A DNA stretch of 25,333 nucleotides from a virus: the IMG/VR virus record IMGVR_UViG_3300035698_001368, positions 1 through 25,333 of that record; one strand, given 5' to 3'. Positions 3,086-22,962 of the stretch are shown in pieces (the stretch's first letter is position 1; the number at the start of each line of letters is the position of its first letter). Both the position numbers and the translations under genes were made by a program. Below the pieces are notes generated by a model. The model was given only the letters and a program-made list of their open reading frames with translations, searched no databases and was not told where the DNA came from.

Positions 3086-3088
3086 TAT

Positions 3089-6800: not shown

Positions 6801-7275
6801 GCAGACCGTCTCTGGAACATCGATAGGTGCAACCGTTCCAGCTAATTGGATTCAATACGTTAATGTGTTTACGGCTGTTGACACAACAGATACAAATCCA
6901 AGGTTGTCGCTTTCCAACAGTTTTGTTGTTAAGATTATTTATACCAAGCAAGGGACTTCGGCTGAAGCAGGAGTTGAGTTCATTTACGAAACTGGCTCCA
7001 TGAATGCTGACACCCCTATGCTGGATAAGTTATGGAAGAAACTGGTAACCAATCACTCTGGAACACAAGGCGCTTTCACTTTTTTCTGGGAAACTGAACT
7101 CGCAAGCGGTTCGTTTGTCGTTGATTTATCTACTAATCCTCAACGTTTTAGTACATTTTTTCAATCAGACGCAATCGGAACCACGATCAGTTTTAGAATC
7201 TATAAAAATGACAATGCGGAATTCAAGCTAAAAGAGTTTCACGGTCTCTTTACACCAAAACCTTTGATAATATAA
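3823..7275 (+). CDS. Tail hub/nozzle-like protein with three tail-collar-like modules
   Basis: The product has 1150 residues. Residues 1 to about 510 are repetitive beta text ('VYDGSSDN', 'RLYYSKP', 'IYIFDGSNAKP'-like strands) resembling the beta-propeller tail hub or nozzle proteins of short-tailed phages, including a fibronectin-like stretch at about 140-240 ('YEYKITYDND...NRKIYRTEGG'). Residues about 517-850 are three successive modules with paired His-x-His motifs such as GHTHAI, NHSHSV, AHSHTF, QHTHTV, SHGHGG and HDHTHAY. Residues about 918-988 match a small insert common in phage tail proteins ('HGLTNGKRIVIDG...TGLFNTIMYYVVG...FQVSLASGG'). The C terminus is a further beta domain. Function: tail tip and probably receptor or appendage binding. 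TAATG coupling links it to both neighbours. Confidence 0.7.
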   Translation: MDDQYQQFYMKATPGMNTKAEELELNGKWVKLAQNLRYEAEPGAVSKRPPLAYYNSSPVSGVGGCLGLYRYYGSANIKTLLAFADKIYVGDDSAGTFAEVRDLTTSGYRTSFVTYKDLVIGCNGQDNPWVYDGSSDNVTWELGACKAVALAGGSNLDSAAEYEYKITYDNDTYVCDTVSNTITTDAGNRKVTLSNIPLPQLGATNRKIYRTEGGGAAFKLLATITDNIQTTYVDDIADGSLGAAYPGVTDIMPKGDILNIHKERLFITGDPNESNRLYYSKPYLPHYIAQTVDIDYLDVSVDDGDEIMGLAVHFGTMVCLKRNTIRKLFVATAGSGADPASWYADDPIAYIGSPVKTSICATPYGIVFLSWNSWYIFDGSNAKPFIDEFDTTHILTSSYTNVVCYYNKNLLYAAYADSDTAAQTNDKIMVYNLKRGVFSVDTINASCFSAHVGDSEAGELYIGDSTQGSVYKAEEADLVYRLSSKTQCSNGTADNVFVGGTESQPYLEIGSATAAEEIPDDVCIFWDDPSTNPGSGWTDITSEIEGKYIQFSSTYGTNAGGAGHTHAITGTLATDTDPAAPCGDNADANALSGNHSHSVSGTSANGQTAHGPRHTLLRLFKKNNTTTEYEFPLGALVFYDQPTQPEGFWVETSSVGYYVRGGAATNYLTSIESAHSHTFSFNSGNNTPNGATNCYSGPVTCVNYYPQHTHTVAGSISSNDDTVWELASVSFTLVRKVGEQSTWDGVSNYVYCLFATSGAASNGWTKVTDYNAKFLKLGSSGIETGVAAGTSHGHGGASGNTDGFNGDKAGAVASRSAEPHDHTHAYTLSTTDGSHTAPANRTFCLVKKELGKMKDYNAAITSSETNGIWTSPALNINADTLETVEWNASLETGDTFSWFIRTASTQSLVEDATAIGTVDHTAETFTQAGHGLTNGKRIVIDGTVVPTGLFNTIMYYVVGVAGNDFQVSLASGGSAVAFSSNGTSVTFKEWTDEQTVSGTSIGATVPANWIQYVNVFTAVDTTDTNPRLSLSNSFVVKIIYTKQGTSAEAGVEFIYETGSMNADTPMLDKLWKKLVTNHSGTQGAFTFFWETELASGSFVVDLSTNPQRFSTFFQSDAIGTTISFRIYKNDNAEFKLKEFHGLFTPKPLII
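5371..6369 (+). repeat. Three tandem His-x-His collar modules within the tail protein
   Basis: Within the 1150-residue protein, residues about 517-623, 631-737 and 742-849 each follow the same plan: a 'phage tail collar'-like beta start (CIFWDD..., LVFYDQ..., CLFATS...), a G/Y-rich 'FLKLG/YYVRGG' strand, two His-x-His motifs on Gly/Ser/Asn-rich loops, and a closing strand of LLRLFKK, FTLVRKV or FCLVKKE type. The nucleotide sequences have diverged, so this is a protein-level repeat. His-x-His motifs in T4 gp12-type short fibres bind metal in trimers; metal binding here is inferred. Confidence 0.65.
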
Positions 7276-7509: not shown

Positions 7510-7986
7510 ATGAATGATTTGATAGATGAAATAATGGAAGACCCTGCAGTTACTAGGGCTAAGATTATGGTATTTGAGGACGAGCTTGGCAAGGTGGACG
7601 GCATTACGCGCGGGGACATGGATGAATGTCCGTTGACTCATACCTTTGCTGAAGGGGTTTATGTGAGGGAAATATTCATACCGGCAGGAACTCTTGTAGT
7701 GGGTAAGATACACAGACACTCACACCCGAACTTCCTGATGAAGGGCAGGGTAACCGTTGTTACAGAAGGTAAAGGTCGTGAAACATTAGAAGCGCCTTTG
7801 TCTATGATTTCTCCAGCCGGAACTAAGCGGATTGTTTATACCCACGAAGATACCGTTTGGATCACTGTTCACAAGACAGAGGAAACAAATATAAATAAAA
7901 TCGAAGAAGCGGTTATAGCTAAAGACTATGATGCCCTTCCTCCTTCGCGGGAGCATAAACAATTAACAAAAGAGGAGGCAATATGA
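7510..7986 (+). CDS. Cupin-fold protein
   Basis: The product has 158 residues. A central double-stranded beta-helix pattern is clear: 'VYVREIFIPAGTLVVGKIHRHSHPNFLMKGRVTVVTEGKG' carries the cupin motif 1 arrangement G-x-x-x-H-x-H with HRHSH and a following glycine turn, and 'YTHEDTVWITVHKTEETN' supplies the motif 2 histidine strand. Histidines near residue 75 and in the second motif could coordinate a metal. Small cupins of this type occur in many tailed phage genomes between tail and internal virion genes, with unknown function. ATG 7510 follows the previous stop by one base and has no good Shine-Dalgarno sequence, so translation may depend on coupling. Its end overlaps the next gene as ATGA, and GAGGAGG in its tail serves that gene. 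Confidence 0.75.
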   Translation: MNDLIDEIMEDPAVTRAKIMVFEDELGKVDGITRGDMDECPLTHTFAEGVYVREIFIPAGTLVVGKIHRHSHPNFLMKGRVTVVTEGKGRETLEAPLSMISPAGTKRIVYTHEDTVWITVHKTEETNINKIEEAVIAKDYDALPPSREHKQLTKEEAI

Positions 7987-8717
7987 GCTGGGTAGCATTA
8001 GGTACTACGGCCGTAGGGGCTGGAATGAGCATGATGAATAAGAAGAAGGCTGGTGGTCAACAGATGATGAACGCCGGCAACATCATGGCGCCTGAAGATA
8101 AATGGGCAGAGGGAGCGCGTCAAAAGAACTTTGACTTTGTTTCCAATATGATGGATGATGTTTCTGCTGGTCGTGACCCGTTGCAAAATAGACGTGACCA
8201 ACAGTTAGAGCATCAAACCAAAGGGATTCGTGAGGATTTCTTTGGAACTGAAGGTGACCGTAATGAGAGCATTGCCAACGTTGGAGTGCAACAAATGGCT
8301 ATGTTTGGTGGTAACGCTAAACAGATGTTGGCTCAAAAGAAGAAGACGCAAAACAGAATGCAAGGTCAGCTTGATGATGTAAGACAGCGGATTGCTGATG
8401 CAGGGACTTCTTATATAGAGAAACAATCGCAGTTTGCTCCTGAGATGATGAACAGGTTGAAAACTGGCGCAGCAACAACAGGTTCCTTCGGCCCTCAAGC
8501 AATGGGTGCACCTTCAAGTGGAGGCGGTCCAGACATGGCAGGGATTAGTTCTATGGTAGGAGCGGGAATTGGGACTATTAAGAAGTCTGGGTTCTCGGCA
8601 AATAATGTTTCAGGCTCCGGACTTTTTGGTAGTAAGTTCATGGGGAAAACCGTAGGAGAAATGGGGCAACAGGGTCCAATGAATAAGCCAGGATTTCGGG
8701 ATAGGAGGGTAAGATGA
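7983..8717 (+). CDS. Probable internal virion / DNA-ejection protein
   Basis: The product has 244 residues. The N terminus is a short Gly/Ala/Met-rich hydrophobic segment (VALGTTAVGAGMSMM). It is followed by a long Gln/Asp/Arg-rich helical region with coiled-coil character (residues about 60-150, for example 'NRMQGQLDDVRQRIADAG') and a Gly/Ser/Pro-rich tail with 'GAPSSGGGPDMAGISSMVGAGIG'. This profile matches the smaller ejection proteins of podoviruses (T7 gp14 or P22 gp7 class), which leave the capsid with the DNA and associate with the host envelope. Position supports it: two more genes follow, the last giant, as in the ordered ejection sets. ATG 7983 has GAGGAGG upstream. There is no diagnostic motif, so the role is inferred. 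Confidence 0.55.
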   Translation: MSWVALGTTAVGAGMSMMNKKKAGGQQMMNAGNIMAPEDKWAEGARQKNFDFVSNMMDDVSAGRDPLQNRRDQQLEHQTKGIREDFFGTEGDRNESIANVGVQQMAMFGGNAKQMLAQKKKTQNRMQGQLDDVRQRIADAGTSYIEKQSQFAPEMMNRLKTGAATTGSFGPQAMGAPSSGGGPDMAGISSMVGAGIGTIKKSGFSANNVSGSGLFGSKFMGKTVGEMGQQGPMNKPGFRDRRVR

Positions 8718-9568
8718 GTAACACAGGAAATCAGCCACCATTAACATTTACAACAATACCTGGTACTGAACCTCCTAGTAAAATGGAGAACTTCATCAAC
8801 GCTACAACGAAGTTCATGGGAGACAAGGCTAGGGCTAAAGCAAAAGAGAAGTCAACCCTTATGCAGTCTATGGCTAATAACAATAGGCTAGGACCGGCTA
8901 AGGATGGAGAAGCAGGTTCGTTTGAATATGGAGATCAGAACCTAAAGGTTCTTGATAACGTTAATACTGGTGCGGATCGCCTGAACAACATGAAGGCAGA
9001 TAATTATATCCAAGACCAGATACTTAGTCAATATAATGAGTCATACATCAAGTCTTATCAGGCTGGTTTAAATAAACAACAGGCTGAAGAGATAGCAAAC
9101 CAGACATTAATACAGGCTGGAAGTGCTTATGGTGTTGACATTTCAGGGCTATTGCCACAGTCGTCAGCTCCCGAAAAAAAGAACTTCCCGGCGCTTAACG
9201 CTAAGGTCGATATGAACAATCCCCTGAGGGCATTACCTTGGGTTACTGGAAATGATCCCGATAAATATCTTCAGCAAGGTGAACCCGGTTTCAAGGGTAA
9301 AATCACAAAGGATTCCATGAAAACTAAAAAGACTCCACAGTCTCAGCCAACTGTTCAGCCGACAACGCAACAGCAGGTTGAGAACTTCAAACCACACGTT
9401 CAGGCTATTACCAAACGCGCACCACAGAATCCTGGAACTGACGTTGAAGGTTTAATTCGAGCAATCAGAGCTCATAAGAAGAAAGGTGTTAGTAAGGACA
9501 TGATTATCAAGGAACTAGGTAGTTTCGTTACTAACGCTAATGTTTTTTACGAGGAGGCAATTAAATAA
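8714..9568 (+). CDS. Probable internal virion protein, disordered Gln-rich
   Basis: The product has 284 residues. It has a helical N-terminal half (FINATTKFMGDKARAKAKEK; 'QILSQYNESYIKSYQAGLN') with Gln/Asn bias, and a Pro/Gln/Thr-rich linker near residues 198-218 ('TPQSQPTVQPTTQQQ'). It ends in a compact helical domain ('DVEGLIRAIRAHKKKGVSKDMIIKELGSF'). There are no membrane segments and no enzymatic motif. It sits between the small ejection-like protein and the giant polyvalent gene, coupled by ATGA at its start and TAATG at its end, with GAGGAGG near the end serving the giant gene. It is most simply a middle member of the ejection set, similar in place to T7 gp15. That role comes from context only. 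Confidence 0.5.
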   Translation: MSNTGNQPPLTFTTIPGTEPPSKMENFINATTKFMGDKARAKAKEKSTLMQSMANNNRLGPAKDGEAGSFEYGDQNLKVLDNVNTGADRLNNMKADNYIQDQILSQYNESYIKSYQAGLNKQQAEEIANQTLIQAGSAYGVDISGLLPQSSAPEKKNFPALNAKVDMNNPLRALPWVTGNDPDKYLQQGEPGFKGKITKDSMKTKKTPQSQPTVQPTTQQQVENFKPHVQAITKRAPQNPGTDVEGLIRAIRAHKKKGVSKDMIIKELGSFVTNANVFYEEAIK

Positions 9569-12500
9569 TGGGAAACCTGTTCAAAGATTTCCAACCGATA
9601 AAGAGCCAAGACACCTTATTTGGTGGATTTGACAAGCTTGATGAAACCACTCCGATGGAAGAACCAACGAATCCGGTTCAACCGATAACTGAAGAACCTG
9701 TGGAGTTTGATGTTCCTCAGGGGAACATTGGCATTGGCACCAGTTATGATGCTCAGGGACAAGTCCCGAAAGGGAAGTGGGGCGAAGCTGTGCCTGATGG
9801 TGCTCGTGGGGTTGTCAGAGGCGTCGTTGGGTCAGGCGAAACGTTGGGACAAATGGGACAGGGATTAAGTTATACCGTGCGTAATCTTAAACAGATTCTA
9901 GCACAGCAAGTGGCTCTTTCCAATAAGATGAATTATGAGAACAATTATGGTCGTCACGTTGCTATGGGTGGCAAGAAGTTTGATTACCCTGAGATTAAGA
10001 TACCAGATGTTGTTGAGAATCCAGATGCATCTTTGTTTAATAAGTTGTTAGAGATTACGCTTGGCGGGTATTGGATGAAGAAGGGAGCCGAGAAGCAGGG
10101 AATGAGGTTCGGTGACGATTACCTTCGTGCCTATTCTCGTCAGCTTATGCAAGACAACCGACAGTATATTAAAGACGTTGGGTTGGATAAGGGTGAGGAG
10201 AAGTTCATTAACAAGCTTGGTGTTGGGTCAGTATCACTTGGCTTATCGCTTGGTTCCGCTTTGATAAATCCGGCACTTCCCTTCATAGCGTTTGGTGGGA
10301 TGGCGGCTGCTTCTGAGTTTGATGAACTGCTTAATGCACATGGGAATGAAGAAGGCGAACAAATGCCTTTGGAAGAAATGATGGGACGCTCCTTTGCTGG
10401 TGGCGTTCTTGAAGGTTCAATAGAGGGAATAGGTGTTAATTTCTTACTATCCCGATGGGGTGGCCCGTTACTTAAAGCTGTTGGCTTATGGGCTATGGAA
10501 GGTGCAGGTCAGGAATCGTTTCAGCAGATTTCTGAGAACGCAATGGTCTATCCGGCAAGACACGGAGAGTATGCTAGACCTGAGATGAAAGATTCTTGGG
10601 GAAATGTATGGCATGAAGGTGTTGGAGATGCTGCTTTATTAGGAGCCGTCTTAAGTGGAGTTGCTGGTAGTGCGTCTTCCGTTTACCATGAAGCCAAGGT
10701 TCGTTCAGTATTAGAGAAGGATATGGGATACACAAAGAAGCAAGCGAAGAAGACTGCCAAGAAGGTGTTGCGAAACTCTCGCAGAGGCATCGATAAGCTG
10801 ATGAAAGATTACATCATGGACGATGTAAAGGCGCTTCAAAACGAACTATCCAAAGCAAAGAACATGGATGAGTATAAGCAACGAATGGACGCGTATTTTG
10901 TTGAGAATCCTAGCACGGAAGTTAAGTTATCTAAGGCTCTTGAGGGCGACATTGAATTCTCTGGAAAGAAAGACCCTAAGACGGGTGAGCTTGAGATTAA
11001 TCGAATCCCTGCATCAAAGGAACAGATAGACCCTAAGAACAGAAAGCAAGCAGAGGAATTACTTCAGCGAGTGTGGGGCAAGTTCCTTGCTTCAGCTAAT
11101 GAGAACAACATCAATATCAGCGATGCTAAAGAACCCGGACAATGGATGCAATCGTTCAGGGAAATCGAATACATCTCAGAGATTATCAAGATGGTTGATT
11201 CTGCGCAGAAGGCTGGTGACACGGAAGGCATTACAGAGTATATCGAAGACCAAATCTTTGGTAAATTAGCTAAGAATTTTAAAGACCCGAACAAGACTAA
11301 GTTTAGAATTTATGTGGAACGCTTTAATCAGGACAGAGCTGATAGTGCTGATGCATTGGTGTGGGTTCCGGACACCTTATCTTCAATGTCGATAGGTGAC
11401 CTTGCTCATAATATTTCCAAGATAAATGCTCAGAGAACTCACCCTGAATACGTCAAGCTTGTAGAAGAAGAGAATACCCGCAGGGAAGCCAACGGTCAGG
11501 AGCCGATAGAGATACCAAAGCCAATTACGCCTGATGACGTTCAGTTTGTAGCTCAGAGAACTAAAGAACAGGGCAGTGCCGTAGCGTCTGCGCGGGAAGC
11601 TTTAGACTTTGCGTTGAGAAATCTTAACGAAATCACTGATGCTGAACTTAACTCTGCCGCATTATTGGAGCGAGCAAGAGAAGATTTATATGGACAGAAC
11701 AATGACCCAAGGGATGACCCTTCGCAAGAAGCGGATCCTGTTGACCCTAAGCCAACGCCAACCCCTCAAGTCGAAGCTGCAGTCCAATCTGAGATTGATA
11801 AGATGAAACAGGGAGGTGAGTCTAAGGAGAATCAGGCCGCGGATCAATGGGTATATTTGCATAAGCTAAAAGCAGAACAGATGGTGGATTATTTTTCTAT
11901 TGGATATAATAATGGCGCACCTGTGGTTGGAATAGGTAGTATGTCAAAGAAAGCTCCGTTCGGCCTTGAGGGCGCTGAAATAAAACTTACAGAGGATCAT
12001 AATCGGCGTCTAAAAGAAGCTAATATGTTAAGCGAGGTTGGTAAAAGGAAAGAAGCATCGGACATAACAAAGCAAGTCAAGAAAGAGATCGGGCAATCTA
12101 TCATTGATGGAACAGTTAAGTTTATTGAAAAAAATGTTAACGTTTGGCATGGGACTAAGGAGAACTCAACGCTATCTAATTTAGCTGCGCGGGAGTTTAT
12201 GTATGATGGTGTTCGGTTTATGTCAGTTGAACACGCTTACCAAACTATGAAGTCCGGAACATTTGATAATGCAACTTGGGTTGCTTACGCAGAAGCTGGT
12301 CCGGGCAAGAAGATTGTTGGTAAAAAGCCAGCGCTTACTACGAACAATTACAATATTTTCCTTATGCAGAAACTCGTTCAGGCGTCGTTTGATCAGAACA
12401 AAGATGCCCAGATGGAACTATTGGCTACCGGCCAGGCGGAGCTCACGCACACGCAAGACATGAGCATTTGGAGAAAGGAATTTCCTCGTATCTTGATGGA

Positions 12501-15500
12501 AGTTCGTGAGTCTTACAGGGACAAAGCTGTTAAATATAAGGGAGATTATGTAAATGACCAGATAGTTAGGGCTGAAGTTCAGGCTAATCAAGACAAGACT
12601 TACATCTTTGGCGATAACGTTAAGGCGTGGGGAGTAAAGCAGGAGACTGGAGACGACATTCATTTTGGAGGACAGGCAAAAGAAATACGCGGAGAAGCCA
12701 ACGGCATAGGTATCCCAACGAAACTAGACGCCACGATGAAAGATGATGCATTCATGAGTGACGCTGAGTTTGATAAGAACAAAGAAGTCATTGATAAAGC
12801 TATTGAATTAGTTCCTAAGGAAAAGCCAGTGGTCATACCGTTGGCTGGAATAGGGACAGGTTTGGCTCAGCTGGAGAAGCGAGCACCCAAAACGTGGGCT
12901 TACCTTCAGGAACAGCTTAAGAAGCTCGAGCAATATCCTGTGAAACAATCAGCTGTTGAGCAAGCGCCTACGGTAGAAACAGGTCTATTTGACAACTTTG
13001 CCCTACACCAAGACCCGGGTGATTCTTATGAAGGACATCCTATTCTTAACCTGCGACACGGGATTGAGACATGGTCTTGGACAGGTGATCAGCACAAAGC
13101 ACTGACTGCTATTGGCTCTTGGATTGACCATAGATTTGAAGCTGGAATGCCTAACAAGCAACGGTATTTTGTGCTTGGAGGATACGCCGGAACTGGTAAG
13201 ACCACGATGATTGAGAATATTATCAAGCATTGCCAGAACCAAGGACTTAGCGTTGGAATAGCTGCCTACACAAACAAGGCAGTTTCCGTTGTGCGAAAGA
13301 AGAATGTGAACCTTGGCGTTGATCCAGCCACTCAAGAGAAGATGATTGAGTATGTTGACCCTGATCAGTTCCAGACTTTACATAAGACTTTACAATTAAA
13401 GATGGACCCATTGACAAAGAAGTTCCACTTTGACGGATCCGGAGAGTTACCCAACGTTCTTATCGTTGATGAGGCGTCTATGGTTTCAACTGAGATGCTC
13501 GGCTGGTTGGCAGAAGCATCTGATGCTACTGGTGCTAAGATTCTTTATATGGGCGACAGTGCTCAGCTTCCACCAGTTAAGAGTGCGAATCCTAATATCT
13601 TTACCTCAGATAAGTTTGTTCAGCCCACAAGGGCTCAGCTCACACAGGTAAAGCGTCAGTCATTAAGTTCTAAGATTCTTCAATACATAACAGCCATAAG
13701 AAATTATGAAGGCAACGAAGGATACTTTATCCCTTCAGAAAGCAACAAGGACGTTAGCGTTCAGAGTTCTGCTGATGCAGTCAAGAACTGGTTGCAGGAA
13801 GTAGTTCAACGGCTAAACACTGTTATGATCGTTGGCACAAATGATGTTCGCAAGGTTCGTAATAAGATGGCTCGTGAAGCTAGGTTTGGTAATGGAGAAT
13901 TGCCTCCTCAGGTTGGCGATGAGATTATTGTCATCAATAACGGAAGCCTTCACGCTAAGAATGGAGAGCTTGGCACGATAGAATCTATTGACAGTCTGGT
14001 GACCAAAGACGTTACGGTGGTTGATTGGCGAAATGGTTATCCAATGCCAGCTGGAACTAAGGAAGCCCACTTCTTATACGTTAAGATTAAAGATATTGAT
14101 GAGGTTGTTCCGATGATGCTCGTTCCTGAGCAACACGCTGCCTCTTATATGGGAGAAGATATTGATGGCATGTCATTGCCAGAGGACTTTAGGGTTGAAA
14201 AGAAGGGCAAGAAGGGTAAGGTTTATGCCAAACTGAAGCCTAGCACTGCAATTTCAACGTGGGGTTACGCCATTACTGGTCATAAATCTCAGGGTTCTCA
14301 ATGGGAGAATGTTTACATTGACCCTGCTATTGGCAACTTCCTTACTAATGTCCTTAAGAGAGATGGTCAGATTTCTAACTGGATATACACTGCCGCTTCA
14401 AGAGCATCTGAACGGTTGAACATTATTGATACTGGAATTGCTCATAAAAGCTGGGCTGAAATAGATGTTAAGTCTAAAGAAGCGATTGAATCTGCAGACC
14501 AAGCACCGAAGAAGGACATATCACCTGAAAAGATGATGGAGCTTGTTCAGGAGAAAGAGGAAGACAATGAGCGAGAAGCTGAGGATAAAGCCGCGGCAGA
14601 CCTTATTGTTTCACAAGCCAATGCTGAGAAGATAAAGGAAGAGAAGCAAACGCCACGCGGGCAAGAGCCGAAGCACGTTAGCATTAAGGAGCCTGTCAGC
14701 GTTCAAGAACCTGCGTTCTCTGAGTTTGAGGACTTGGGTATAGCTGATTTAATTAAAGATTGGTCTGATACCCATATAACATCCTTAGACGCTTCAAGCA
14801 ACTTAGAGACATGGAAGAAGACCATAGCGCCTCAGCTTGGAAGGGATCTCACCTCTCAGGAAGAACAACGCCTTATCTATGAGTGGGGCAAGTATCTGAA
14901 AAAGAAGTTTAGTTCCACGCAGGAAAAGAAAGCTATTAAGGATACTGTTTCGAGAATGAAGAAGTCTGGAGCTATTAAGACCCAAAAGCAAGAAGCTGAG
15001 CAGGAAATAGCTATCGGCCAGTTCTTTGAGAAGCGCAGGAAGATTGCCTCTGACATCACAATAGGATTATCCCAACAGGCAGAACCGTTGGATGGAAGTG
15101 ATCCGTCAGATGTTGATGCATCGCGTCCGCAGCCGAACCAACCCAACAGTAAGAGGGCAACTGGCACTACGTTTGTATGCCAAAGCGGGAATGCCTCAAA
15201 CAAAAAGGGGTTTGGATCGGAAGTAAACGCCGACAGGCAGTTTGAGTTAATAGGGGCGCAGTATGGCGTTTTGACTAATGCCTGGTCATTCGGTGGCAAG
15301 TATGGAGATAAGAGCCCAAATGAGGTGTTTTTGAGTAAAGATGAGCTTGCAGAGGGGTGGAAGAAGGTTCTCCTTGCCAACAAAACTATGCGCAGAAAGC
15401 TTGATAATGTGAGCCAACAGGTTAAGAATCTGTTGAGTCGCAACTGGTTTCAGGTTAAGCATGCTGATGAGGTATTTGCTATTGCTCCAATGAAGAACGG

Positions 15501-18500
15501 AAAGGTTCAGGGTGGCACAGGCTACGCTGTTCAGATGGCGATCGATGCTAAGAAAACTGTCCATGTCTTTAACGGGCAGGAGAATACTTGGTATGTTAAT
15601 AGAGGCAGTGGTTGGATTCTTGAACAACCTCCGATTCTTACTCAGAGCTTTGCTGGTGTTGGGTCACGCACTATGGAGGCCAACGGACAGCAGGCAATCA
15701 AGGACCTTTATGACCGCACGTTTACTGGATTTACTGTTCATGACAGCTTAGGTCAGCAGGATACCATCGAAGCAGAAGCCCACGCAGTCGCGAACGAAGC
15801 GTTGACTAAAATCGAGCAGGACAAAGATGACAACCGAATGGTTGCCAGCCCGGAACTCGATAAGGTGCTGCAGGCTTTCGTTGACATGGAGGAGGAAGGC
15901 ATTGCCGTTGATTTTACAGGTGAAGATTTAGTTGAAGAGTTGTCTAAAAGATTAGGGATACACAAGGAAAAGGTTCATGGATTGCTTTATGAGTTTGAGA
16001 ATCTTCAGACATTTGTTCAGCAAGGCGTGATTTCCGGGAACTCCATTGAGGAGCGCGTTGGTAGAGGCCGACGTAGGCAAATAGAGCAGTATGCCTTCAC
16101 CGAGGAACTGCAAGAGATGTCCCTGAGCATGAACTTCGTTTCTTTTGAGTATGCGAAGAAGATGGCACAGCAGGATATGGGAGTTGAATCGGCAGCATTT
16201 GAGGATCCGTCAGTTCAAGTTGACCCATCGGGGGAAACGTTGAGATTAAAGCCGGAGTCAGGCGTTGAGTTCGTGCACGGAACTTCACCAGGGATGACAA
16301 TGGAGGAGAAAAAGAAGCACGATATGTCAATCAACACGAGAGAAACTCCAAAGAGTATGCTTTCTAAACCGTTGACTAAAGCTCAACAGCAAATGAAAGA
16401 TAAGGAGCTGGCTAAACGCAAGCAGGATTCGGACAGGGAAGCTGGCAATAAGCCAATCGAACCTAATAAGAGTTCTGATATGTATATTACTCAGTTGCTA
16501 AAGATAGTTAATCCTTCCGGCAACCTAACGTTTGAACAGTTCAAGCAGATGGAAGCGTTGATCAAGGACGATTGGAAGAAGACGAACTATGCTGAAGAGC
16601 AGATTTATTCTATGGAACTTCCTGACCACTCTACCTTGTTCATGAAGGTTAAGGGATTTGGCAATTACAAGAAAGACGACCGCACGATTACAGCCATCAA
16701 GAACCCAGCTTACGCTCAATACGTTGGGTGGAAGATGAAGGCAGCCCGTAAACATTTAGGCGCTAAAAAGCTTTCATGGGTTGAGCCGGGAGTGGTTTCA
16801 ACTGGGAACAAGGTTCCTTCGGCAGATGAATTGGCAAAGAGATTGAAGTCTATCAATGAGACAATAGCCTCTCTTGAGGAAGCCCGAAGCGTTATCGGTA
16901 ATTATTACATCGATAAGATTAACACAATGGCAGAATCTTTTGACCCGTTGGTGCAAGCCTATGTTCAAGACCTAATGAAGAACATCACGCCTGACAGTAG
17001 TAAGGAAATAATTGCTGCAGTTCGTCTTGCTCAGGCTGATCAACGCACACAAGCCAACGCCTGGGGAGTGCGCGGAGCTGGAGAATACAATCCCAACGAT
17101 AAGATTAAAACTCAGAAGGGAGAGTTGGGTAAGGAGAGAGATGACGGTCGGGACAGAGACACGGAAAACCGTGAAGGCGATATGTCGATGAACGTAATGT
17201 TAGGTGGCGAAGGTCAAAACGTTGATGAAGTTTTTATGCTTGATACAGCTCAGGGTGTGATTTCTTTGCCTAGAGGTCACTATGTTGTTCGAAACCAAAC
17301 AACCAGAGGCGATGACTTGCTGATTGAAACTCCAAATGGAGAGTTCCACACGGTCACTCCTTCTGAATACATGAGGTTTATTAGATCGCCGATTACTTCA
17401 TCGACAGATAGGATTAACTATTTGTTTTGTGGACCGGCAATTACTACTGAGCTGATGAAAGGATTACCTCCTCAGATTATCTCTGATGGAAGTGACACTG
17501 CTCCAATCTTGGGAGTCTGGGATTATATGAAGAAGTTTCCGGGTGTCGTTGGGATAAGTAAAATCCTTGCACCGGACTGGACTAAGGCGATGAACGAGAA
17601 AAAAGTATATGCTCAAAGTAAGTCCCAAAATGATTTAAACAAAGATAACTTGCAGGGATATAAGGTTCTTCAAGAGACATCGATGCTTGGTGCAGTTGCT
17701 ACAATCTTCCCAATCCAAAACGCTTTTACTAAAGACCGTGATGCTATGTGGGCACAGAAGATTCAGGAGCAAAGGGAACAAGGTCAAGAGGTTGATGCGA
17801 TGGCTAAAGACGAAGACGGTCGTTTACTTAGGGACAAGTTCCATCGAATGACTATGAAGTTATTAGCTTCGGCGGCAAATATGATTCACGTTGATGATAG
17901 GTCAGCAAACTATGCATTCACAAGACGTGGCAATGGAGAACATCCAAGTAACAAGCTTTACAAAGACCCAACGTTGGATCAGCGAACTTATGTTGACCGT
18001 GTAATCTTATTCCACGTTTACTTTGGCATACCTTTTACGGGAGATATTCAGAACGACATGAATGACATCTTCGGTTTAAGGACTAAAGATAAGACATATA
18101 AACCCAACGTTAATACTGATGTTTATAAATGGAGCACGCGCAGGTCTCCAGTTTTCTTTGAACTCTTATCAAATCCAAAGGTTGCCAGTGATGATACGCT
18201 GAAGAACCTTCTTGTTATGATGAAGAAGAACGTTGAGAAACCTATTCTTAAGTCGGCTCTAGAGAATGGACTGTGGAAGAATACCAACATCTTCGAGAGT
18301 GTTCTTAACGGATACTTACATAGGTCTTGGTCACTGACTAAGGAGCAACAGGGAACGTCTGGTATTAGCGGATCTCCAAGCGCTACCGGAAGCACGAAAC
18401 GTCACCCAAGAGCATACGATACTTACGAAGCTTTTATTGATGGCGCGTCAACTGACGGTTACATTGCGGCGGACGACATCTTCACGAACTTAATTGACTA

Positions 18501-20544
18501 TATCGTTGAGACAACCTTGCAGGTTAAGCAAGCGCAGATAATCAAGTCCTTCGAAAACGAAAGACAATACGGATTAAACTATGATACTCCGCATACTGAG
18601 AACGATGAAACGATGGGAATTGCTAATATCAAGAACTATGTTCCGGAAGGAGAGTTCTATGCAATCATGTATCCAACTCAAGATGTAATCGTTGCAGAAT
18701 CGGACAGGCTCACGAAAGCGACCGGAAAATTCGTCTCACCTTATCGTATATTAGAGAAGCTAGGATACATCGAAGGCAAATCGAGCCCCGGATTAGCGGA
18801 ATGGAGTCACGGTGCATTTCAGGCTGCGTTTGTTTACAAGCCCCTGAATGACATGATCGAAGTCGCTCAAGGTTCGTTACCTTCATTAGCAGAAATGAAC
18901 ATTGCAATCAAAGGCCTTAGGATGCTTCGATACCTAAAGACAATCAATCCACTCGACCAGGTTCTTCCTTGGGCTGGTGGCGCATTGATGGCAAGACCGA
19001 GAACAATGCCTGTAACCGCGGCTAGGATTGCATTGAAGGCTTTGGTTGCTGTTCCTAAGGGAATATTTGTTACCGGCCCGCAAGTGTTGGCAGGAACTTA
19101 TCGAGGTAGAGATTGGAGTGATGCAACTAAATATTCTCGTGCGCCTAGAGCAATGCGAGATGGCTTATCTGCTATTAGCTGGAATTATATGCTTCACAAC
19201 ATGATGGACACGGCTCAATCTGGTTCACATAAGGTTGGTAAGGTCGTAAGTTTCCCTAACCTAAGACCGTTAGGTGACAGAATGAAGGATTATTTCTTTA
19301 GCGTTGGCGGTGTGAGCACGGCATTGTTTGACGATATGTTGGCTGATGAGGTTTATAAAGGTTATGTCATAATGGCCGAGAAGTATGAAGGTCAAGGCAT
19401 GCACCCTGATGTTGCCTCTAAGCGTGCGGTTGAGTTTATGAATACTGCTGGGTTTATGATGGGACGATCTAAGTTCGGACACGAAAGTATGTGGATGGAC
19501 GCATTGCTTATGTCTCGCCAGTTCTTTGCTACTGGATTGAGGACAGCAGTGTTCGTTGCAGAGCAAGCCCCGATTGCTGGTGATGGCATCAGGAAGTTTG
19601 CATCAACGCAGAAGACTGGCAAGTTCAGTCGTATGTTTAACTCAGTGTTGGGTGGTGAGCTTACTGAGATGGATCACAAGACCGTTGGAAAGGATATTGC
19701 TCACGGCGTTATGTGGATTGGATTCTGGACTACTATCCTAAATTCTATGACCCAATTCGTATTAAGCTTTGATGATGATGACGAGATAGATGAGCATGGT
19801 GAGGTGGGTTCTGAGCTTGGGCTAATGGCTAAGAAACGTTGGATGATATTCAACGAAGGTCAGATGAAGTTTAGTGCTAGATTGCCATTGAAAGACTTCA
19901 ATCAGAAGCGCATTTATGCTTCTACGCAGATGAGCAAATTGTTCAAAGATCAGGTTGATTTCTACGGTGGCGCCATTGATGCTGGATACAACCTGTTCCA
20001 TGAGCCTGAGGAGCACATTGACATCGGTAAGGGATTCCATAAGTGGATGCAGAACAAAGAGGGTATGTATCGACTATTCACAGAGCTTTGGGCAAATGAG
20101 GACTGGTTCAATGACCCGATATACAGTCCTGAATTAGGGTGGAGCCAAGAGAACCTTGAAAAGGTCTTTGGTTACATCGCTACCGAGGCTATAACTCCTA
20201 TTGGAGCTGAGAAACCGTTGGGTGGAGAGAAGCTTGAGCCAGAACTGATGAGAATGTTTGAGGTCTCTGGTGGGAATATCAGGCGAGGCTCAGCGTTGGC
20301 TGAAGGGGATACGTTCAAGGAGTCCAAAAAGGCTAAAACACAGGCAAATATACAGAACTTCTTTGACAGGAGCCGGAGGAAAGAACTGCGAACTATGTCT
20401 CCGGAGCAGCTGAGAGAACACCTGCTGAAACACCCTGAAGATGCTGGTTCGTTTAAAGGTGTCACTAAGAAGCGAGGCGCTCCGTTGGGTATGTTTAAGA
20501 AGGCAAATAGAAAAGCAATTTCAAGATGGCAACAGCGTAAATAG
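9568..20544 (+). CDS. Giant polyvalent virion protein: NADAR, macro-like, SF1B helicase, SLOG-like
   Basis: The product has 3658 residues. Residues about 216-250, 275-312 and 352-377 are Gly/Ala-rich hydrophobic segments, as in injected channel-forming proteins. Residues about 855-985 are a NADAR (YbiA-like) domain: W860-H-G, 'LSNLAAREFMYDG', VEH with E888, and 'ELTHTQD' with D964. Residues about 1010-1120 carry GDN, 'GGQAKEIRGEANGIGIPTK' and 'IPLAGIGTGLAQL', possibly macro-related. Residues about 1175-1640 are an SF1B helicase: Walker A GGYAGTGKTT (1204-1213), DEAS (D1301, E1302), GDSAQLPPV (1329-1337), TGHKSQG (1570-1576), YTAASRASERL (1607-1617). Residues about 1867-2053 are SLOG-like, with 'GGTGYAVQMAID' from 1982 and 'FAGVGSRTM' from 2028. 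Proline- and charge-rich linkers separate the modules. The C-terminal 1500 residues are unrecognised, with a hydrophobic helix near 3375-3400. It is probably packaged and injected. The order of ejection genes supports this; virion packaging is inferred. Confidence 0.85.
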   Translation: MGNLFKDFQPIKSQDTLFGGFDKLDETTPMEEPTNPVQPITEEPVEFDVPQGNIGIGTSYDAQGQVPKGKWGEAVPDGARGVVRGVVGSGETLGQMGQGLSYTVRNLKQILAQQVALSNKMNYENNYGRHVAMGGKKFDYPEIKIPDVVENPDASLFNKLLEITLGGYWMKKGAEKQGMRFGDDYLRAYSRQLMQDNRQYIKDVGLDKGEEKFINKLGVGSVSLGLSLGSALINPALPFIAFGGMAAASEFDELLNAHGNEEGEQMPLEEMMGRSFAGGVLEGSIEGIGVNFLLSRWGGPLLKAVGLWAMEGAGQESFQQISENAMVYPARHGEYARPEMKDSWGNVWHEGVGDAALLGAVLSGVAGSASSVYHEAKVRSVLEKDMGYTKKQAKKTAKKVLRNSRRGIDKLMKDYIMDDVKALQNELSKAKNMDEYKQRMDAYFVENPSTEVKLSKALEGDIEFSGKKDPKTGELEINRIPASKEQIDPKNRKQAEELLQRVWGKFLASANENNINISDAKEPGQWMQSFREIEYISEIIKMVDSAQKAGDTEGITEYIEDQIFGKLAKNFKDPNKTKFRIYVERFNQDRADSADALVWVPDTLSSMSIGDLAHNISKINAQRTHPEYVKLVEEENTRREANGQEPIEIPKPITPDDVQFVAQRTKEQGSAVASAREALDFALRNLNEITDAELNSAALLERAREDLYGQNNDPRDDPSQEADPVDPKPTPTPQVEAAVQSEIDKMKQGGESKENQAADQWVYLHKLKAEQMVDYFSIGYNNGAPVVGIGSMSKKAPFGLEGAEIKLTEDHNRRLKEANMLSEVGKRKEASDITKQVKKEIGQSIIDGTVKFIEKNVNVWHGTKENSTLSNLAAREFMYDGVRFMSVEHAYQTMKSGTFDNATWVAYAEAGPGKKIVGKKPALTTNNYNIFLMQKLVQASFDQNKDAQMELLATGQAELTHTQDMSIWRKEFPRILMEVRESYRDKAVKYKGDYVNDQIVRAEVQANQDKTYIFGDNVKAWGVKQETGDDIHFGGQAKEIRGEANGIGIPTKLDATMKDDAFMSDAEFDKNKEVIDKAIELVPKEKPVVIPLAGIGTGLAQLEKRAPKTWAYLQEQLKKLEQYPVKQSAVEQAPTVETGLFDNFALHQDPGDSYEGHPILNLRHGIETWSWTGDQHKALTAIGSWIDHRFEAGMPNKQRYFVLGGYAGTGKTTMIENIIKHCQNQGLSVGIAAYTNKAVSVVRKKNVNLGVDPATQEKMIEYVDPDQFQTLHKTLQLKMDPLTKKFHFDGSGELPNVLIVDEASMVSTEMLGWLAEASDATGAKILYMGDSAQLPPVKSANPNIFTSDKFVQPTRAQLTQVKRQSLSSKILQYITAIRNYEGNEGYFIPSESNKDVSVQSSADAVKNWLQEVVQRLNTVMIVGTNDVRKVRNKMAREARFGNGELPPQVGDEIIVINNGSLHAKNGELGTIESIDSLVTKDVTVVDWRNGYPMPAGTKEAHFLYVKIKDIDEVVPMMLVPEQHAASYMGEDIDGMSLPEDFRVEKKGKKGKVYAKLKPSTAISTWGYAITGHKSQGSQWENVYIDPAIGNFLTNVLKRDGQISNWIYTAASRASERLNIIDTGIAHKSWAEIDVKSKEAIESADQAPKKDISPEKMMELVQEKEEDNEREAEDKAAADLIVSQANAEKIKEEKQTPRGQEPKHVSIKEPVSVQEPAFSEFEDLGIADLIKDWSDTHITSLDASSNLETWKKTIAPQLGRDLTSQEEQRLIYEWGKYLKKKFSSTQEKKAIKDTVSRMKKSGAIKTQKQEAEQEIAIGQFFEKRRKIASDITIGLSQQAEPLDGSDPSDVDASRPQPNQPNSKRATGTTFVCQSGNASNKKGFGSEVNADRQFELIGAQYGVLTNAWSFGGKYGDKSPNEVFLSKDELAEGWKKVLLANKTMRRKLDNVSQQVKNLLSRNWFQVKHADEVFAIAPMKNGKVQGGTGYAVQMAIDAKKTVHVFNGQENTWYVNRGSGWILEQPPILTQSFAGVGSRTMEANGQQAIKDLYDRTFTGFTVHDSLGQQDTIEAEAHAVANEALTKIEQDKDDNRMVASPELDKVLQAFVDMEEEGIAVDFTGEDLVEELSKRLGIHKEKVHGLLYEFENLQTFVQQGVISGNSIEERVGRGRRRQIEQYAFTEELQEMSLSMNFVSFEYAKKMAQQDMGVESAAFEDPSVQVDPSGETLRLKPESGVEFVHGTSPGMTMEEKKKHDMSINTRETPKSMLSKPLTKAQQQMKDKELAKRKQDSDREAGNKPIEPNKSSDMYITQLLKIVNPSGNLTFEQFKQMEALIKDDWKKTNYAEEQIYSMELPDHSTLFMKVKGFGNYKKDDRTITAIKNPAYAQYVGWKMKAARKHLGAKKLSWVEPGVVSTGNKVPSADELAKRLKSINETIASLEEARSVIGNYYIDKINTMAESFDPLVQAYVQDLMKNITPDSSKEIIAAVRLAQADQRTQANAWGVRGAGEYNPNDKIKTQKGELGKERDDGRDRDTENREGDMSMNVMLGGEGQNVDEVFMLDTAQGVISLPRGHYVVRNQTTRGDDLLIETPNGEFHTVTPSEYMRFIRSPITSSTDRINYLFCGPAITTELMKGLPPQIISDGSDTAPILGVWDYMKKFPGVVGISKILAPDWTKAMNEKKVYAQSKSQNDLNKDNLQGYKVLQETSMLGAVATIFPIQNAFTKDRDAMWAQKIQEQREQGQEVDAMAKDEDGRLLRDKFHRMTMKLLASAANMIHVDDRSANYAFTRRGNGEHPSNKLYKDPTLDQRTYVDRVILFHVYFGIPFTGDIQNDMNDIFGLRTKDKTYKPNVNTDVYKWSTRRSPVFFELLSNPKVASDDTLKNLLVMMKKNVEKPILKSALENGLWKNTNIFESVLNGYLHRSWSLTKEQQGTSGISGSPSATGSTKRHPRAYDTYEAFIDGASTDGYIAADDIFTNLIDYIVETTLQVKQAQIIKSFENERQYGLNYDTPHTENDETMGIANIKNYVPEGEFYAIMYPTQDVIVAESDRLTKATGKFVSPYRILEKLGYIEGKSSPGLAEWSHGAFQAAFVYKPLNDMIEVAQGSLPSLAEMNIAIKGLRMLRYLKTINPLDQVLPWAGGALMARPRTMPVTAARIALKALVAVPKGIFVTGPQVLAGTYRGRDWSDATKYSRAPRAMRDGLSAISWNYMLHNMMDTAQSGSHKVGKVVSFPNLRPLGDRMKDYFFSVGGVSTALFDDMLADEVYKGYVIMAEKYEGQGMHPDVASKRAVEFMNTAGFMMGRSKFGHESMWMDALLMSRQFFATGLRTAVFVAEQAPIAGDGIRKFASTQKTGKFSRMFNSVLGGELTEMDHKTVGKDIAHGVMWIGFWTTILNSMTQFVLSFDDDDEIDEHGEVGSELGLMAKKRWMIFNEGQMKFSARLPLKDFNQKRIYASTQMSKLFKDQVDFYGGAIDAGYNLFHEPEEHIDIGKGFHKWMQNKEGMYRLFTELWANEDWFNDPIYSPELGWSQENLEKVFGYIATEAITPIGAEKPLGGEKLEPELMRMFEVSGGNIRRGSALAEGDTFKESKKAKTQANIQNFFDRSRRKELRTMSPEQLREHLLKHPEDAGSFKGVTKKRGAPLGMFKKANRKAISRWQQRK

Positions 20545-20601: not shown

Positions 20602-20638
20602 AGAAAAATCTTAAACACACTTCACGGGGGAATTGCCC

Positions 20639-21583
20639 ATGCTCACAATCAGTCACAACAAATCTTCTATCGCCAGAGGTTGTTGGAAAAAGTTTGATTG
20701 GCGTTACAACTACGAATACACTCCCATTAAAAAATCCACCACACTTACATTAGGTTCAGTCGTCCACCAAGCATTTGATATGTTCTACAATGGCTTCAAG
20801 CACGAGGAGGTTTACAAGTATATTGTTGACACCTTCGACGAGGAAATAGCCAGGATTGGATTGGAAGAACAAGAGGGTTTAGTTATTGCTAGATACACTG
20901 CCCTCGGAATGTTTGCGAACTATCCGTTCAGGTCACTCGGTTCCTTCGAGAAAATCGAAAGCGAAAAATCTTTTAGCGTTCGCGTTGGTAAGTTGCGTGG
21001 CGTTAGGTTTGAAGGTCGCATCGACGGTATCGTTAAGCGAGATGGTTGTTGGTGGGTCAGAGAATTAAAAACCACAGGACTAAACACAAAACAATTTGCT
21101 AGTCGCATTAGCACATCGGCACAGTCAACCGGTTATATTTATGCTATGCGCAAACTAGGGTTCGATGTCAAAGGAACGTTGTATGACTTCATCAAGAAAC
21201 CCCTGTTGCGTAAGAGGGTAAATGAAAACCAAAACGACTTCGGCAATAGGATTGCTACTGACTATTTACATAAAGGCGACATGTATTACGGACAGTTCTA
21301 TTCATGGCGTAACGAGGAGGAGATGCAGATTTGGGAGGAGGATATGATAACGTTGATACGAGATATGCGACGACGCAAAGCATACCCACGCAACCCTGAT
21401 GCTTGCTACAACTATAACTCCGAGTGCCCATATAAGAAAATATGTTATGTCAAGACACCAGATCCACTAATGTTAAAATTGTATTTCAAACACAGAGGGG
21501 AGGTAATAATCAATGAGCACGGACACGCCGAAGAAATCACAAGCCAAAACACCAAAAGCTTTTTCCGAGACTGTAGCAACTAA
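20639..21583 (+). CDS. Cas4/RecB-like Fe-S PD-(D/E)XK nuclease
   Basis: The product has 314 residues from ATG 20639. A TTG at 20633 is in frame, but it lies only two bases from the GGGGG ribosome site, whereas the ATG is at the ideal distance. The nuclease core is readable: H43 in 'GSVVHQAFD', D129 in 'GRIDGIV', E142-x-K144 in 'VRELKTT', and Q162 in 'AQSTGYIYAM'. Four cysteines (C15 near the N terminus; C256, C263 and C269 in the C-terminal part) are placed like the 4Fe-4S staple of Cas4 and AddB nucleases. Such proteins resect or trim DNA ends. The neighbouring Sak4-like annealing ATPase and SSB-like protein suggest end processing for recombination. The last 71 bases overlap the next gene in another frame. 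Confidence 0.85.
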   Translation: MLTISHNKSSIARGCWKKFDWRYNYEYTPIKKSTTLTLGSVVHQAFDMFYNGFKHEEVYKYIVDTFDEEIARIGLEEQEGLVIARYTALGMFANYPFRSLGSFEKIESEKSFSVRVGKLRGVRFEGRIDGIVKRDGCWWVRELKTTGLNTKQFASRISTSAQSTGYIYAMRKLGFDVKGTLYDFIKKPLLRKRVNENQNDFGNRIATDYLHKGDMYYGQFYSWRNEEEMQIWEEDMITLIRDMRRRKAYPRNPDACYNYNSECPYKKICYVKTPDPLMLKLYFKHRGEVIINEHGHAEEITSQNTKSFFRDCSN

Positions 21584-21715: not shown

Positions 21716-22513
21716 ATGCTAGAAGACATAAAACCAATCGGGAACACGATAGACAGGGGAATTTCTTTCATCATCTACGGCAACCCCGGTGTTGGTAAGA
21801 CAACACTTGCCACCACGCTACCTCACGACGAAACACTTATCCTTAATGCCGAAGCTGGTCTCGGAGTATTGCTCGGCAAGAAAGGTCTCCACGTTATGAG
21901 CCTTGTTGACTTCATCGAGGACGGTGAATTTGAAAGGGTAGTTGACAATCTCTACAAAGAACTAAGAACAACCTCTCACGTATTCAAGTATGTCGTATTA
22001 GATAACCTCTCGGAAATAGAGAATCTCTTATTGTCAAGCTTGACTAAACGAAGAGGTAAAGAAGTCCCAACGATTAAGGAGTATGGTGACGTTGCGTTCA
22101 AGATGAAGGAATGGGTTCACCTGTATCGTGACCTTGTCTTCTCAGGCATCAACGTTATCTTTAACGCTTGGGAATTCCCAATGGAGTTACGCAATTATGA
22201 TGGCAATGTATTAACGTTGGTATTGCCAAAGGTATCCAAGAGTTATGCGCCTAATATTTGCGGGTTGGTAGATGTGGTCGGGCACATGGAAGTCCACGAG
22301 AAGTCAGGCAAGCGTTGGGTTAGGTTTAGGCCTAATGACAGTTGTCTGGTTAAATCGCAGTTCGCGGGAATTGGGGGAGCCAACGACCAATCGGGGGAAC
22401 CCGCTGATTTAATGGCGGTGATTGACAAGATCAGGAGCCACAAGTATGGGGAGGACGAAGTGGCTGAACCAGAAGAACAACCTAAAGAAACCAAGAAAGG
22501 TAAAACGAAATGA
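21716..22513 (+). CDS. Sak4-like RecA-fold ATPase (phage recombination)
   Basis: The product has 265 residues. A Walker A motif GNPGVGKTT occupies residues 22-30 with Lys28. The following strand 'TLILNAEAGLGVL' and the Walker B strand 'FKYVVLDNLSE' with Asp96 give the RecA-like core seen in Sak4 and related phage AAA-type nucleotide-binding proteins. The N-terminal core is followed by 'FSGINVIFNAWEFPMEL' and 'LVLPKVSKSYAPNICGLVDVVGHM', features I associate with this family. The Lys/Glu-rich C-terminal tail is probably flexible. Sak4 proteins promote single-strand annealing together with a cognate SSB; the next gene fits that partner. AAGGGGGA precedes ATG 21716, and its stop overlaps the next start as ATGA. 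Confidence 0.8.
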   Translation: MLEDIKPIGNTIDRGISFIIYGNPGVGKTTLATTLPHDETLILNAEAGLGVLLGKKGLHVMSLVDFIEDGEFERVVDNLYKELRTTSHVFKYVVLDNLSEIENLLLSSLTKRRGKEVPTIKEYGDVAFKMKEWVHLYRDLVFSGINVIFNAWEFPMELRNYDGNVLTLVLPKVSKSYAPNICGLVDVVGHMEVHEKSGKRWVRFRPNDSCLVKSQFAGIGGANDQSGEPADLMAVIDKIRSHKYGEDEVAEPEEQPKETKKGKTK

Positions 22514-22962
22514 AAATGAATTGGGATGTGGACACAGAGGGCGGTGGTGGCTTTTACGAAGCTGGCATTTATAGGGTAAAACCTACCGCTATCGAAGAAG
22601 TAGAGGCAAAGTCAGGAAACCAGCAATTAAGGATTAAGGCAACGATCTGCGAAGGACAGCATAAAGGTCGTAAAATTACAGAGCATATCACGTTGCTTGA
22701 ATCGTGTATGTGGAAATTAGTTAAGTTCGTGAAGGCGATGGGAGTTGACGTAACAACGTTGGCTAAAGGTGTCGATACTTCTTCTGGAGAGTTCAGAAAC
22801 TTGCTTAATAAGTGTTTAAATAAATCAACATATTGGAACGTGACCGTTACTAAGAGCCAAGATGGTTCTAAAGATGTCAACGACATTGTTGATTACCAAC
22901 CTGACCCTGATGCAGTCTGGGAAGAACAAGAAGATACTCCGGAGTTTTTGAAGAATGGCTAA
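22510..22962 (+). CDS. DUF669-type ssDNA-binding-like protein
   Basis: The product has 150 residues. It begins 'MKMNWDVDTEGGGGFYEAGIYRVK' and continues with OB-like strands ('QQLRIKATICEGQHKGRKITEHITLLES'), a helical segment ('WKLVKFVKAMGVD') and a C-terminal strand ('TYWNVTVTKSQDGSKDVNDIVDY') before an acidic end (DPDAVWEEQEDTPEFL). This is the pattern of phage DUF669 proteins, which usually sit beside Sak4-type ATPases and are thought to act as single-strand DNA-binding proteins. The acidic C-terminal tail also resembles SSB tails that recruit partners. ATGA coupling to the Sak4-like gene supports a joint role in annealing and replication. ATG 22516 is an alternative start. Confidence 0.75.
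   Translation: MKMNWDVDTEGGGGFYEAGIYRVKPTAIEEVEAKSGNQQLRIKATICEGQHKGRKITEHITLLESCMWKLVKFVKAMGVDVTTLAKGVDTSSGEFRNLLNKCLNKSTYWNVTVTKSQDGSKDVNDIVDYQPDPDAVWEEQEDTPEFLKNG

What the first reader, a model, noticed from the sequence alone, without database searches (positions are those of the whole stretch)
9568..20544. A 3658-residue single-gene protein carrying four enzyme or sensor modules inside a virion-type gene
One unbroken frame joins hydrophobic ejection-type segments, NADAR, a 'GGQA...GIPTK' domain, a full SF1B helicase and a SLOG-like domain to a long unknown C-terminal part. Polyvalent proteins of phages and conjugative elements are an established concept. This particular order (NADAR, then macro-like, then helicase, then SLOG-like) looks like a pre-loaded entry kit: two modules for ADP-ribose chemistry, one to open or clear DNA, one nucleotide sensor or enzyme. 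At this length the gene is about 43% of the window.
Basis: partly seen in the sequence, partly recalled or inferred. Interest (0 to 1): 0.8.

Follow-up and report, generated by a model that had tools for sequence, protein, structure and literature searches.

The report
Giant virion cargo with swapped enzyme block
One very long phage gene sits where short-tailed phages keep the proteins they inject with their DNA, and its middle carries a replaceable set of parts (an ADP-ribose remover, an unknown domain, a DNA helicase and a nucleotide-sensor-like domain) that its close relatives lack, which suggests a phage toolkit exchanged on a shared carrier.

Summary
Confirmed: window 9568-20544 is one open frame of 3658 codons (43% of the window). 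It holds a His-type NADAR domain with its catalytic residues (E888, K895, H961), a DUF7831 domain, a complete SF1B Dda/RecD2-like helicase and a phage SLOG/'DprA-like' domain. The 'macro-like' label is not supported: the 'GGQA...GIPTK' module is DUF7831, and its confident model matches no solved fold. The order has no special meaning: the modules recur in other giant phage ORFs in several orders, including crassvirus cargo-type proteins and an N4-type virion RNA polymerase. Ten syntenic IMG/VR fragments carry a giant ORF (1645-2666 aa) in the same slot, after two small ORFs; at least eight share a C-terminal ~900-aa domain with the window. Only one has any payload module (DUF7831); the closest relative (Sak4 76%) has none. 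Best reading: a virion-packaged, ejected polyvalent cargo protein with a conserved C-terminal body and a swappable early-infection block, probably countering ADP-ribose-based host defence and opening the entering DNA. Virion presence and activity are inferred. It is a new variant of a known kind, with an uncharacterised domain tightly coupled to NADAR.

The parts
9568..20544 (+). Giant ORF, 3658 aa: N-terminal region, payload block, linker, conserved C-terminal body
9568..12126 (+). N-terminal region (aa 1-853), Gly/Ala-rich marginally hydrophobic stretches around aa 222 and 355; no homologue found
12127..12519 (+). NADAR domain (aa 854-984), gp30.3-like His type; catalytic E888, K895, H961 invariant
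12562..12933 (+). DUF7831 domain (aa 999-1122), fold without a match in PDB
13075..14697 (+). SF1B (Dda/RecD2-like) DNA helicase (aa 1170-1710), all core motifs intact
15160..15723 (+). SLOG / 'DprA-like' phage domain (aa 1865-2052); first glycine-rich loop altered by an insertion, GGTG motif kept
15724..17859 (+). Linker / uncharacterised region (aa 2053-2764)
17860..20538 (+). Conserved C-terminal body (aa 2765-3657), shared with giant ORFs of syntenic relatives; predicted mainly helical, low-confidence model
7983..8717 (+). Small ORF (244 aa) overlapping the next gene; candidate ejection/channel protein by position
8714..9568 (+). Small ORF (284 aa) overlapping the giant ORF's start; candidate ejection protein by position
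3089..3823 (+). SU10-type head-tail adaptor
3823..7275 (+). Nozzle/stem-like tail protein (1150 aa), 45-69% identical in the main matches of nine relatives; the name rests on position and sequence character
7510..7986 (+). Tail fibre/adhesin family protein (phrog_12032, phrog_24280)
20633..21583 (+). PD-(D/E)XK nuclease, first gene after the giant ORF; conserved neighbour in the relatives
21716..22513 (+). Sak4-like ATPase; anchor used to find the syntenic relatives (40-76% identity)
22510..22962 (+). DUF669 / single-strand DNA-binding protein

Best explanation
The gene encodes a polyvalent cargo protein of a short-tailed phage. It is made late, packed in the head with two small ejection proteins, and pushed into the cell ahead of or with the DNA. 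The C-terminal ~900 residues are the constant body that the lineage needs for packing or ejection. The block at aa ~854-2052 is exchangeable payload acting in the first minutes: NADAR hydrolyses ADP-ribose from guanine in phage DNA (or handles ADP-ribose signals), DUF7831 assists NADAR on the same or a neighbouring bond, the SF1B helicase opens or clears the entering DNA, and the SLOG domain binds a nucleotide or single-stranded DNA. Shown here: the frame, the domains, the intact NADAR and helicase motifs, the gene slot, the conserved C-terminal body and the missing payload in relatives. Inferred: virion packaging, ejection, enzyme activity and target.
For: Domains and motifs. Slot: adaptor, nozzle-like protein, adhesin, two overlapping small ORFs, giant ORF, then recombination genes; a relative shows terminase, portal and head genes upstream. 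Ten syntenic records keep a giant ORF there; at least eight share the C-terminal body. Payload absent except DUF7831 in one. Same modules in giant cargo-type proteins elsewhere: Pylas virion RNA polymerase, crassvirus giant ORFs. The NADAR-bearing giant of cr126_1 is homologous to phiCrAss001 gp50 (32% over ~900 aa), which mass spectrometry found in virions (PMC10172136). N4 ejects a giant protein with two smaller ejection proteins from one operon (PMC12633501). NADARs including a phage one remove ADP-ribose from guanine in DNA in vitro (PMC11125620). Polyvalent concept: PMC5512222.
Against: No virion proteomics for this phage or any of its ten relatives. The small ORFs have no significant similarity to known ejection proteins. 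No clear transmembrane helix. The recombination genes that follow would also suit a replication role. The SLOG first loop is altered, so that module may not be active.
Confidence: 0.68

Rival explanations
1. It is an intracellular replication/recombination protein made after infection: helicase plus DprA-like domain working with the adjacent nuclease, Sak4 and single-strand binding protein, and not packaged.
For: Next genes are PD-(D/E)XK nuclease, Sak4, DUF669 and a DnaD-like protein; helicase and SLOG/DprA-like domains suit recombination. Jumbo phages keep stand-alone DprA-like proteins suggested to bind ssDNA (PMC7824862).
Against: Relatives keep a giant ORF in the slot with the same C-terminal body but no helicase or SLOG, so the slot's constant function is not helicase-based. 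Two overlapping small ORFs directly upstream and the tail genes before them point to the virion block.
Confidence: 0.15
2. It is a virion RNA polymerase of the N4 or crassvirus kind whose polymerase core is too diverged to recognise, with accessory modules.
For: The SLOG domain lies in the N4-like Pylas virion RNA polymerase and in giants related to crassvirus RNA polymerase proteins.
Against: No DxDxD motif; no similarity of the window's C-terminal half to the crassvirus polymerase proteins; the C-terminal profile matches no PDB chain.
Confidence: 0.06
3. It is a late-expressed effector against competing phages or for takeover of the host, made in the cell rather than injected.
For: Authors of the polyvalent-protein survey allow roles in superinfection exclusion for such domains (PMC5512222).
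Against: Same slot and cassette evidence as above; the crassvirus homologue family is found in virions.
Confidence: 0.06
4. The payload is a decaying passenger: inserted domains that are partly inactive and have no selected function.
For: SLOG first loop is altered; payload absent from all but one relative.
Against: NADAR catalytic residues and every helicase motif are intact in one long open frame; base composition is even across modules; the same modules recur together in unrelated giants.
Confidence: 0.05

Closest known systems
Polyvalent proteins (Iyer et al. 2017, PMC5512222)
   Same: Several unrelated domains in one polypeptide next to virion genes of a terminase-portal type phage lineage.
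   Different: NADAR and SLOG are not named in that paper's text; the HExxH zincin-like segment seen in six relatives is absent here.
NAD+/ADP-ribose networks of phages with SLOG-NADAR fusions (Iyer et al. 2022, PMC9503650)
   Same: SLOG joined to NADAR or to SF1 helicase, and NADAR-type genes beside virion genes, are described there as counter-defence.
   Different: Here NADAR, DUF7831, helicase and SLOG are in one giant ejection-slot protein; no held paper names DUF7831.
Crassvirus virion cargo proteins (phiCrAss001 gp47/gp49/gp50; cr126_1, cr130_1, cr131_1, cr113_1 giants)
   Same: Giant cargo-type proteins carrying the same NADAR, DUF7831 and SLOG modules.
   Different: Those are RNA-polymerase-associated proteins of crassviruses; the window shows no similarity to that polymerase region.
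N4/Pylas virion RNA polymerase and its ejection cassette
   Same: One giant protein plus two smaller ejection proteins; the Pylas polymerase carries the SLOG domain.
   Different: No polymerase recognisable in the window protein; cassette proteins not shown homologous by sequence.
T4 gp30.3 / DarT-associated NADAR antitoxins
   Same: Same E, K, His catalytic pattern as the phage class (PMC11125620).
   Different: Stand-alone proteins there; here an internal module of a giant protein.

Membership tests
Polyvalent protein (phage type) | Several domains of disparate activity in one polypeptide | tested here: met
   NADAR, DUF7831, SF1B helicase, SLOG
Polyvalent protein (phage type) | Encoded next to virion genes of a terminase-portal phage | tested here: met
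   adaptor, nozzle-like protein, adhesin upstream; terminase and portal in relative G004
Polyvalent protein (phage type) | Packaged in the virion and injected | not testable with these tools
   needs virion proteomics; only indirect support from crassvirus gp50
Polyvalent protein (phage type) | Zincin-like peptidase for self-processing (common theme, not required) | tested here: not met
   no HExxH in the window protein; present in 6 of 10 relatives
NADAR superfamily (His-type phage class) | Catalytic Glu and Lys plus Asp/His/Glu in the last strand | tested here: met
   E888, K895, H961 invariant with T4 gp30.3 and crassvirus copies
NADAR superfamily (His-type phage class) | Hydrolysis of ADP-ribosyl guanine | not testable with these tools
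   shown for a related phage protein in PMC11125620
   DUF7831 model pLDDT 84; no PDB match at E <= 0.001 and no macrodomain among 46 weak matches
SF1B helicase (Dda/RecD2) | Core motifs I, II, III, V, VI and family profile | tested here: met
SLOG / DprA | Profile match to phage DprA-like family | tested here: met
   phrog_768 3.9e-10
SLOG / DprA | First glycine-rich nucleotide loop (SGGAxGAD) | tested here: not met
   window has SG plus an insertion before NAD; GGTG motif kept
SLOG / DprA | Homology to a bona fide bacterial DprA | tested here: inconclusive
   hhalign with E. coli Smf probability 0.2%; weak Pfam DprA hit only in one relative, L076
Virion RNA polymerase (N4 or crassvirus) | Polymerase domain | tested here: not met
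   no DxDxD, no similarity to crassvirus polymerase regions; the Pylas match is confined to the SLOG part and ~90 further residues

The most novel reading that the evidence does not exclude
DUF7831 is an undescribed ADP-ribose-handling fold that works as one unit with NADAR (in one giant it is inserted inside NADAR), and the window protein is a single injected machine in which a helicase and an ADP-ribose eraser act together on the entering genome, on a constant ejection body whose payload the lineage exchanges.
Probability: 0.2. Interest if true: 0.72.

Novelty: new variant of a known kind. Interest (0 to 1): 0.52.

Why it matters
The lineage gives a natural comparison: same tail gene, same slot, same C-terminal body, different payload. 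That would let one ask directly whether payload blocks decide which bacterial defences a phage survives. It also points to an uncharacterised domain (DUF7831, without a solved relative, seen in phages and in predicted structures from giant eukaryotic viruses) that repeatedly travels with NADAR in giant phage proteins.

Tried and rejected
Macro identity of the GGQA module: rejected on the fold search. Virion RNA polymerase identity: no DxDxD and no similarity. True DprA identity: not supported against E. coli Smf. Conserved meaning of the module order: rejected, orders differ. Direct search for relatives of the whole protein or of its C-terminal half with single-sequence patterns found none; relatives came from the SLOG, DUF7831 and Sak4 alignments. 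C-terminal body structure: model too poor to use (pLDDT 48), so no fold search was made. Host: a Sak4 alignment found nothing in bacterial genomes. A mixed NADAR plus DUF7831 alignment mis-paired the domains because of swapped order and was not used for folding. Similarity of the window's N-terminal region to the relatives' N-termini: none significant.

Full report
What is there. The window is a 25,333-base IMG/VR virus record of 'linear' type, probably a fragment. The gene at 9568-20544 is one open frame of 3658 codons with a good ribosome site. Upstream are an SU10-type adaptor, a nozzle-like tail protein, a tail adhesin and two small ORFs of 244 and 284 aa; the adhesin gene, the two small ORFs and the giant ORF overlap one another by 1-4 bases. 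Downstream are a PD-(D/E)XK nuclease, Sak4, DUF669/SSB and a DnaD-like protein.

Modules. NADAR at aa 854-984: the cut-out domain matches Pfam NADAR at 3.7e-6 and the T4 gp30.3 family at 8e-6, each below the curated bit cut-off, but an alignment with seven phage copies including T4 gp30.3 keeps E888, K895 and H961 invariant, and the profile of that alignment finds YbiA (3e-16) and a NADAR structure (7e-8) in PDB. The His form is the phage class in PMC11125620, where NADAR proteins including one from a coliphage removed ADP-ribose from guanine in DNA. DUF7831 at aa 999-1122: E 6e-32; the AlphaFold model is confident (pLDDT 84); it finds no solved structure at E <= 0.001 and no macrodomain; in the viral library its significant named matches are DUF7831 proteins or crassvirus giants, from phages and from giant eukaryotic viruses such as Tupanvirus. 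Helicase at aa 1170-1710: phrog_325 1.3e-67, nearest solved relatives a deep-sea helicase and RecD-type enzymes, all motifs intact. SLOG/DprA-like at aa 1865-2052: phrog_768 3.9e-10 and 37-45% identity to other phage copies. Its GGTG motif is kept, but the first loop, SGGAxGAD in relatives, has an insertion and lost glycines. Against E. coli Smf/DprA the profile comparison is not significant, so 'DprA-like' is a family label, not a shown function.

Where else the modules occur. Among the 80 best SLOG loci in IMG/VR, 24 lie in ORFs over 1000 aa; for DUF7831 26 of 80; for NADAR 37 of 73 ORFs found. These are selected best hits, not unbiased frequencies, and some are near-duplicates. Giants with two or three of the modules show many orders: SLOG-NADAR-DUF7831 (cr130_1), DUF7831-SLOG-AlkB-NADAR (L056), DUF7831-NADAR-SLOG (L117), NADAR-SLOG-helicase (L238), SLOG then helicase (L042, L068), NADAR-SLOG-DUF4326 (L052). 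I found no other protein with all four. In L107 DUF7831 is inserted inside NADAR, and in L128 a YpsA-type SLOG-looking segment sits at about the same point, which argues for joint function.

Link to virions. The SLOG domain is part of the N4-like Pylas virion RNA polymerase. The giant ORFs of cr113_1, cr130_1 and cr131_1 with SLOG or NADAR-DUF7831 lie in the cargo/transcription block beside the structural genes. The NADAR-bearing giant of cr126_1 is homologous over ~900 aa (32%, 8e-106) to phiCrAss001 gp50, which was detected in virions (PMC10172136); the alignments leave the NADAR part of cr126_1 without a partner in gp50, so virion proof exists for the protein family, not for a NADAR-bearing copy. 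N4 has a cassette of one giant and two smaller ejection proteins (PMC12633501), the same plan as here by number and position, not shown by sequence.

The lineage comparison. A Sak4 alignment found twelve records; ten of them carry a readable giant ORF beside the shared neighbouring genes, and nine of these have the nozzle-like protein (main matches 45-69%). All ten have a giant ORF of 1645-2666 aa directly after two small ORFs. A profile of the C-terminal ~900 aa built from seven of them hits the window at 2765-3657 with E 3e-72 and one further record, G009 (L200), at 9e-34, so at least eight share the body. G006 (L197) aligns only weakly to L200 and G008 (L199) gave no C-terminal hit in that search. 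The payload is absent from nine records and only DUF7831 is in the tenth, L101. These records are fragments, but the giant ORF was read whole in each. The closest relative (Sak4 76%, nozzle-like protein 69%, nuclease 67%) has a 2328-aa giant with a weak ART-PolyVal match (E 0.007, aa ~788-956) and no eraser set. Six relatives carry HExxH; the window has none. Base composition is even across the window's modules, so the block need not be recent.

Reading. A constant C-terminal body plus variable payload in a virion slot is best explained as ejected cargo carrying early-infection enzymes. The ADP-ribose role follows from the NADAR residues and published NADAR chemistry; its target (DNA guanine modified by a DarT-like toxin, or soluble ADP-ribose signals as PMC9503650 argues) is open. 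The helicase could open the leading end of the entering DNA or strip bound proteins; this is inference. The alternatives are listed with reasons.

Novelty. Polyvalent proteins, virion cargo enzymes and SLOG-NADAR or SLOG-helicase fusions are published (PMC5512222, PMC9503650, PMC7824862, PMC10172136). What appears new, within the papers and collections searched, is this four-module set, the body/payload contrast within one lineage, and the repeated coupling of the unexplored DUF7831 to NADAR.

Noticed in passing
L107 ORF from 3731, aa 2059-2299: DUF7831 is inserted inside a NADAR domain (NADAR profile 11-45, DUF7831, NADAR 69-148).
   Followed up: partly
L128 ORF from 1910, aa 2980-3269: A YpsA-type SLOG-looking segment (SGGQTGGDEAGL...) splits a NADAR domain at about the same point.
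   Followed up: no
L192 / L179 giant ORF, aa ~788-956: The closest relative carries a weak ADP-ribosyltransferase-like (ART-PolyVal) match and no NADAR: possible writer for eraser exchange.
   Followed up: partly
L101, L193, L194, L195, L196, L200 giant ORFs: HExxH zincin-like segment with following acidic residues in six relatives; absent from the window protein.
   Followed up: partly
L002 (Pylas virion RNA polymerase), aa ~990-1254: A SLOG/DprA-like domain and ~90 further residues are shared with the window protein.
   Followed up: partly
L013 (cr126_1), giant ORF from 4842: NADAR domain near the start of a homologue of phiCrAss001 gp50, a protein detected in virions.
   Followed up: yes
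973-2460: 495-aa protein with two overlapping hydrophobic stretches and a C-terminal CxxC zinc-ribbon-like end; no family, no phage match.
   Followed up: no
24182-24445: Small DUF1508-family protein near the replication genes.
   Followed up: no
L056 aa 3202-3334 and L090 aa 1300-1432: AlkB-like 2OG-Fe(II) oxygenase matches in giants with SLOG, a further nucleic-acid repair-type payload.
   Followed up: no
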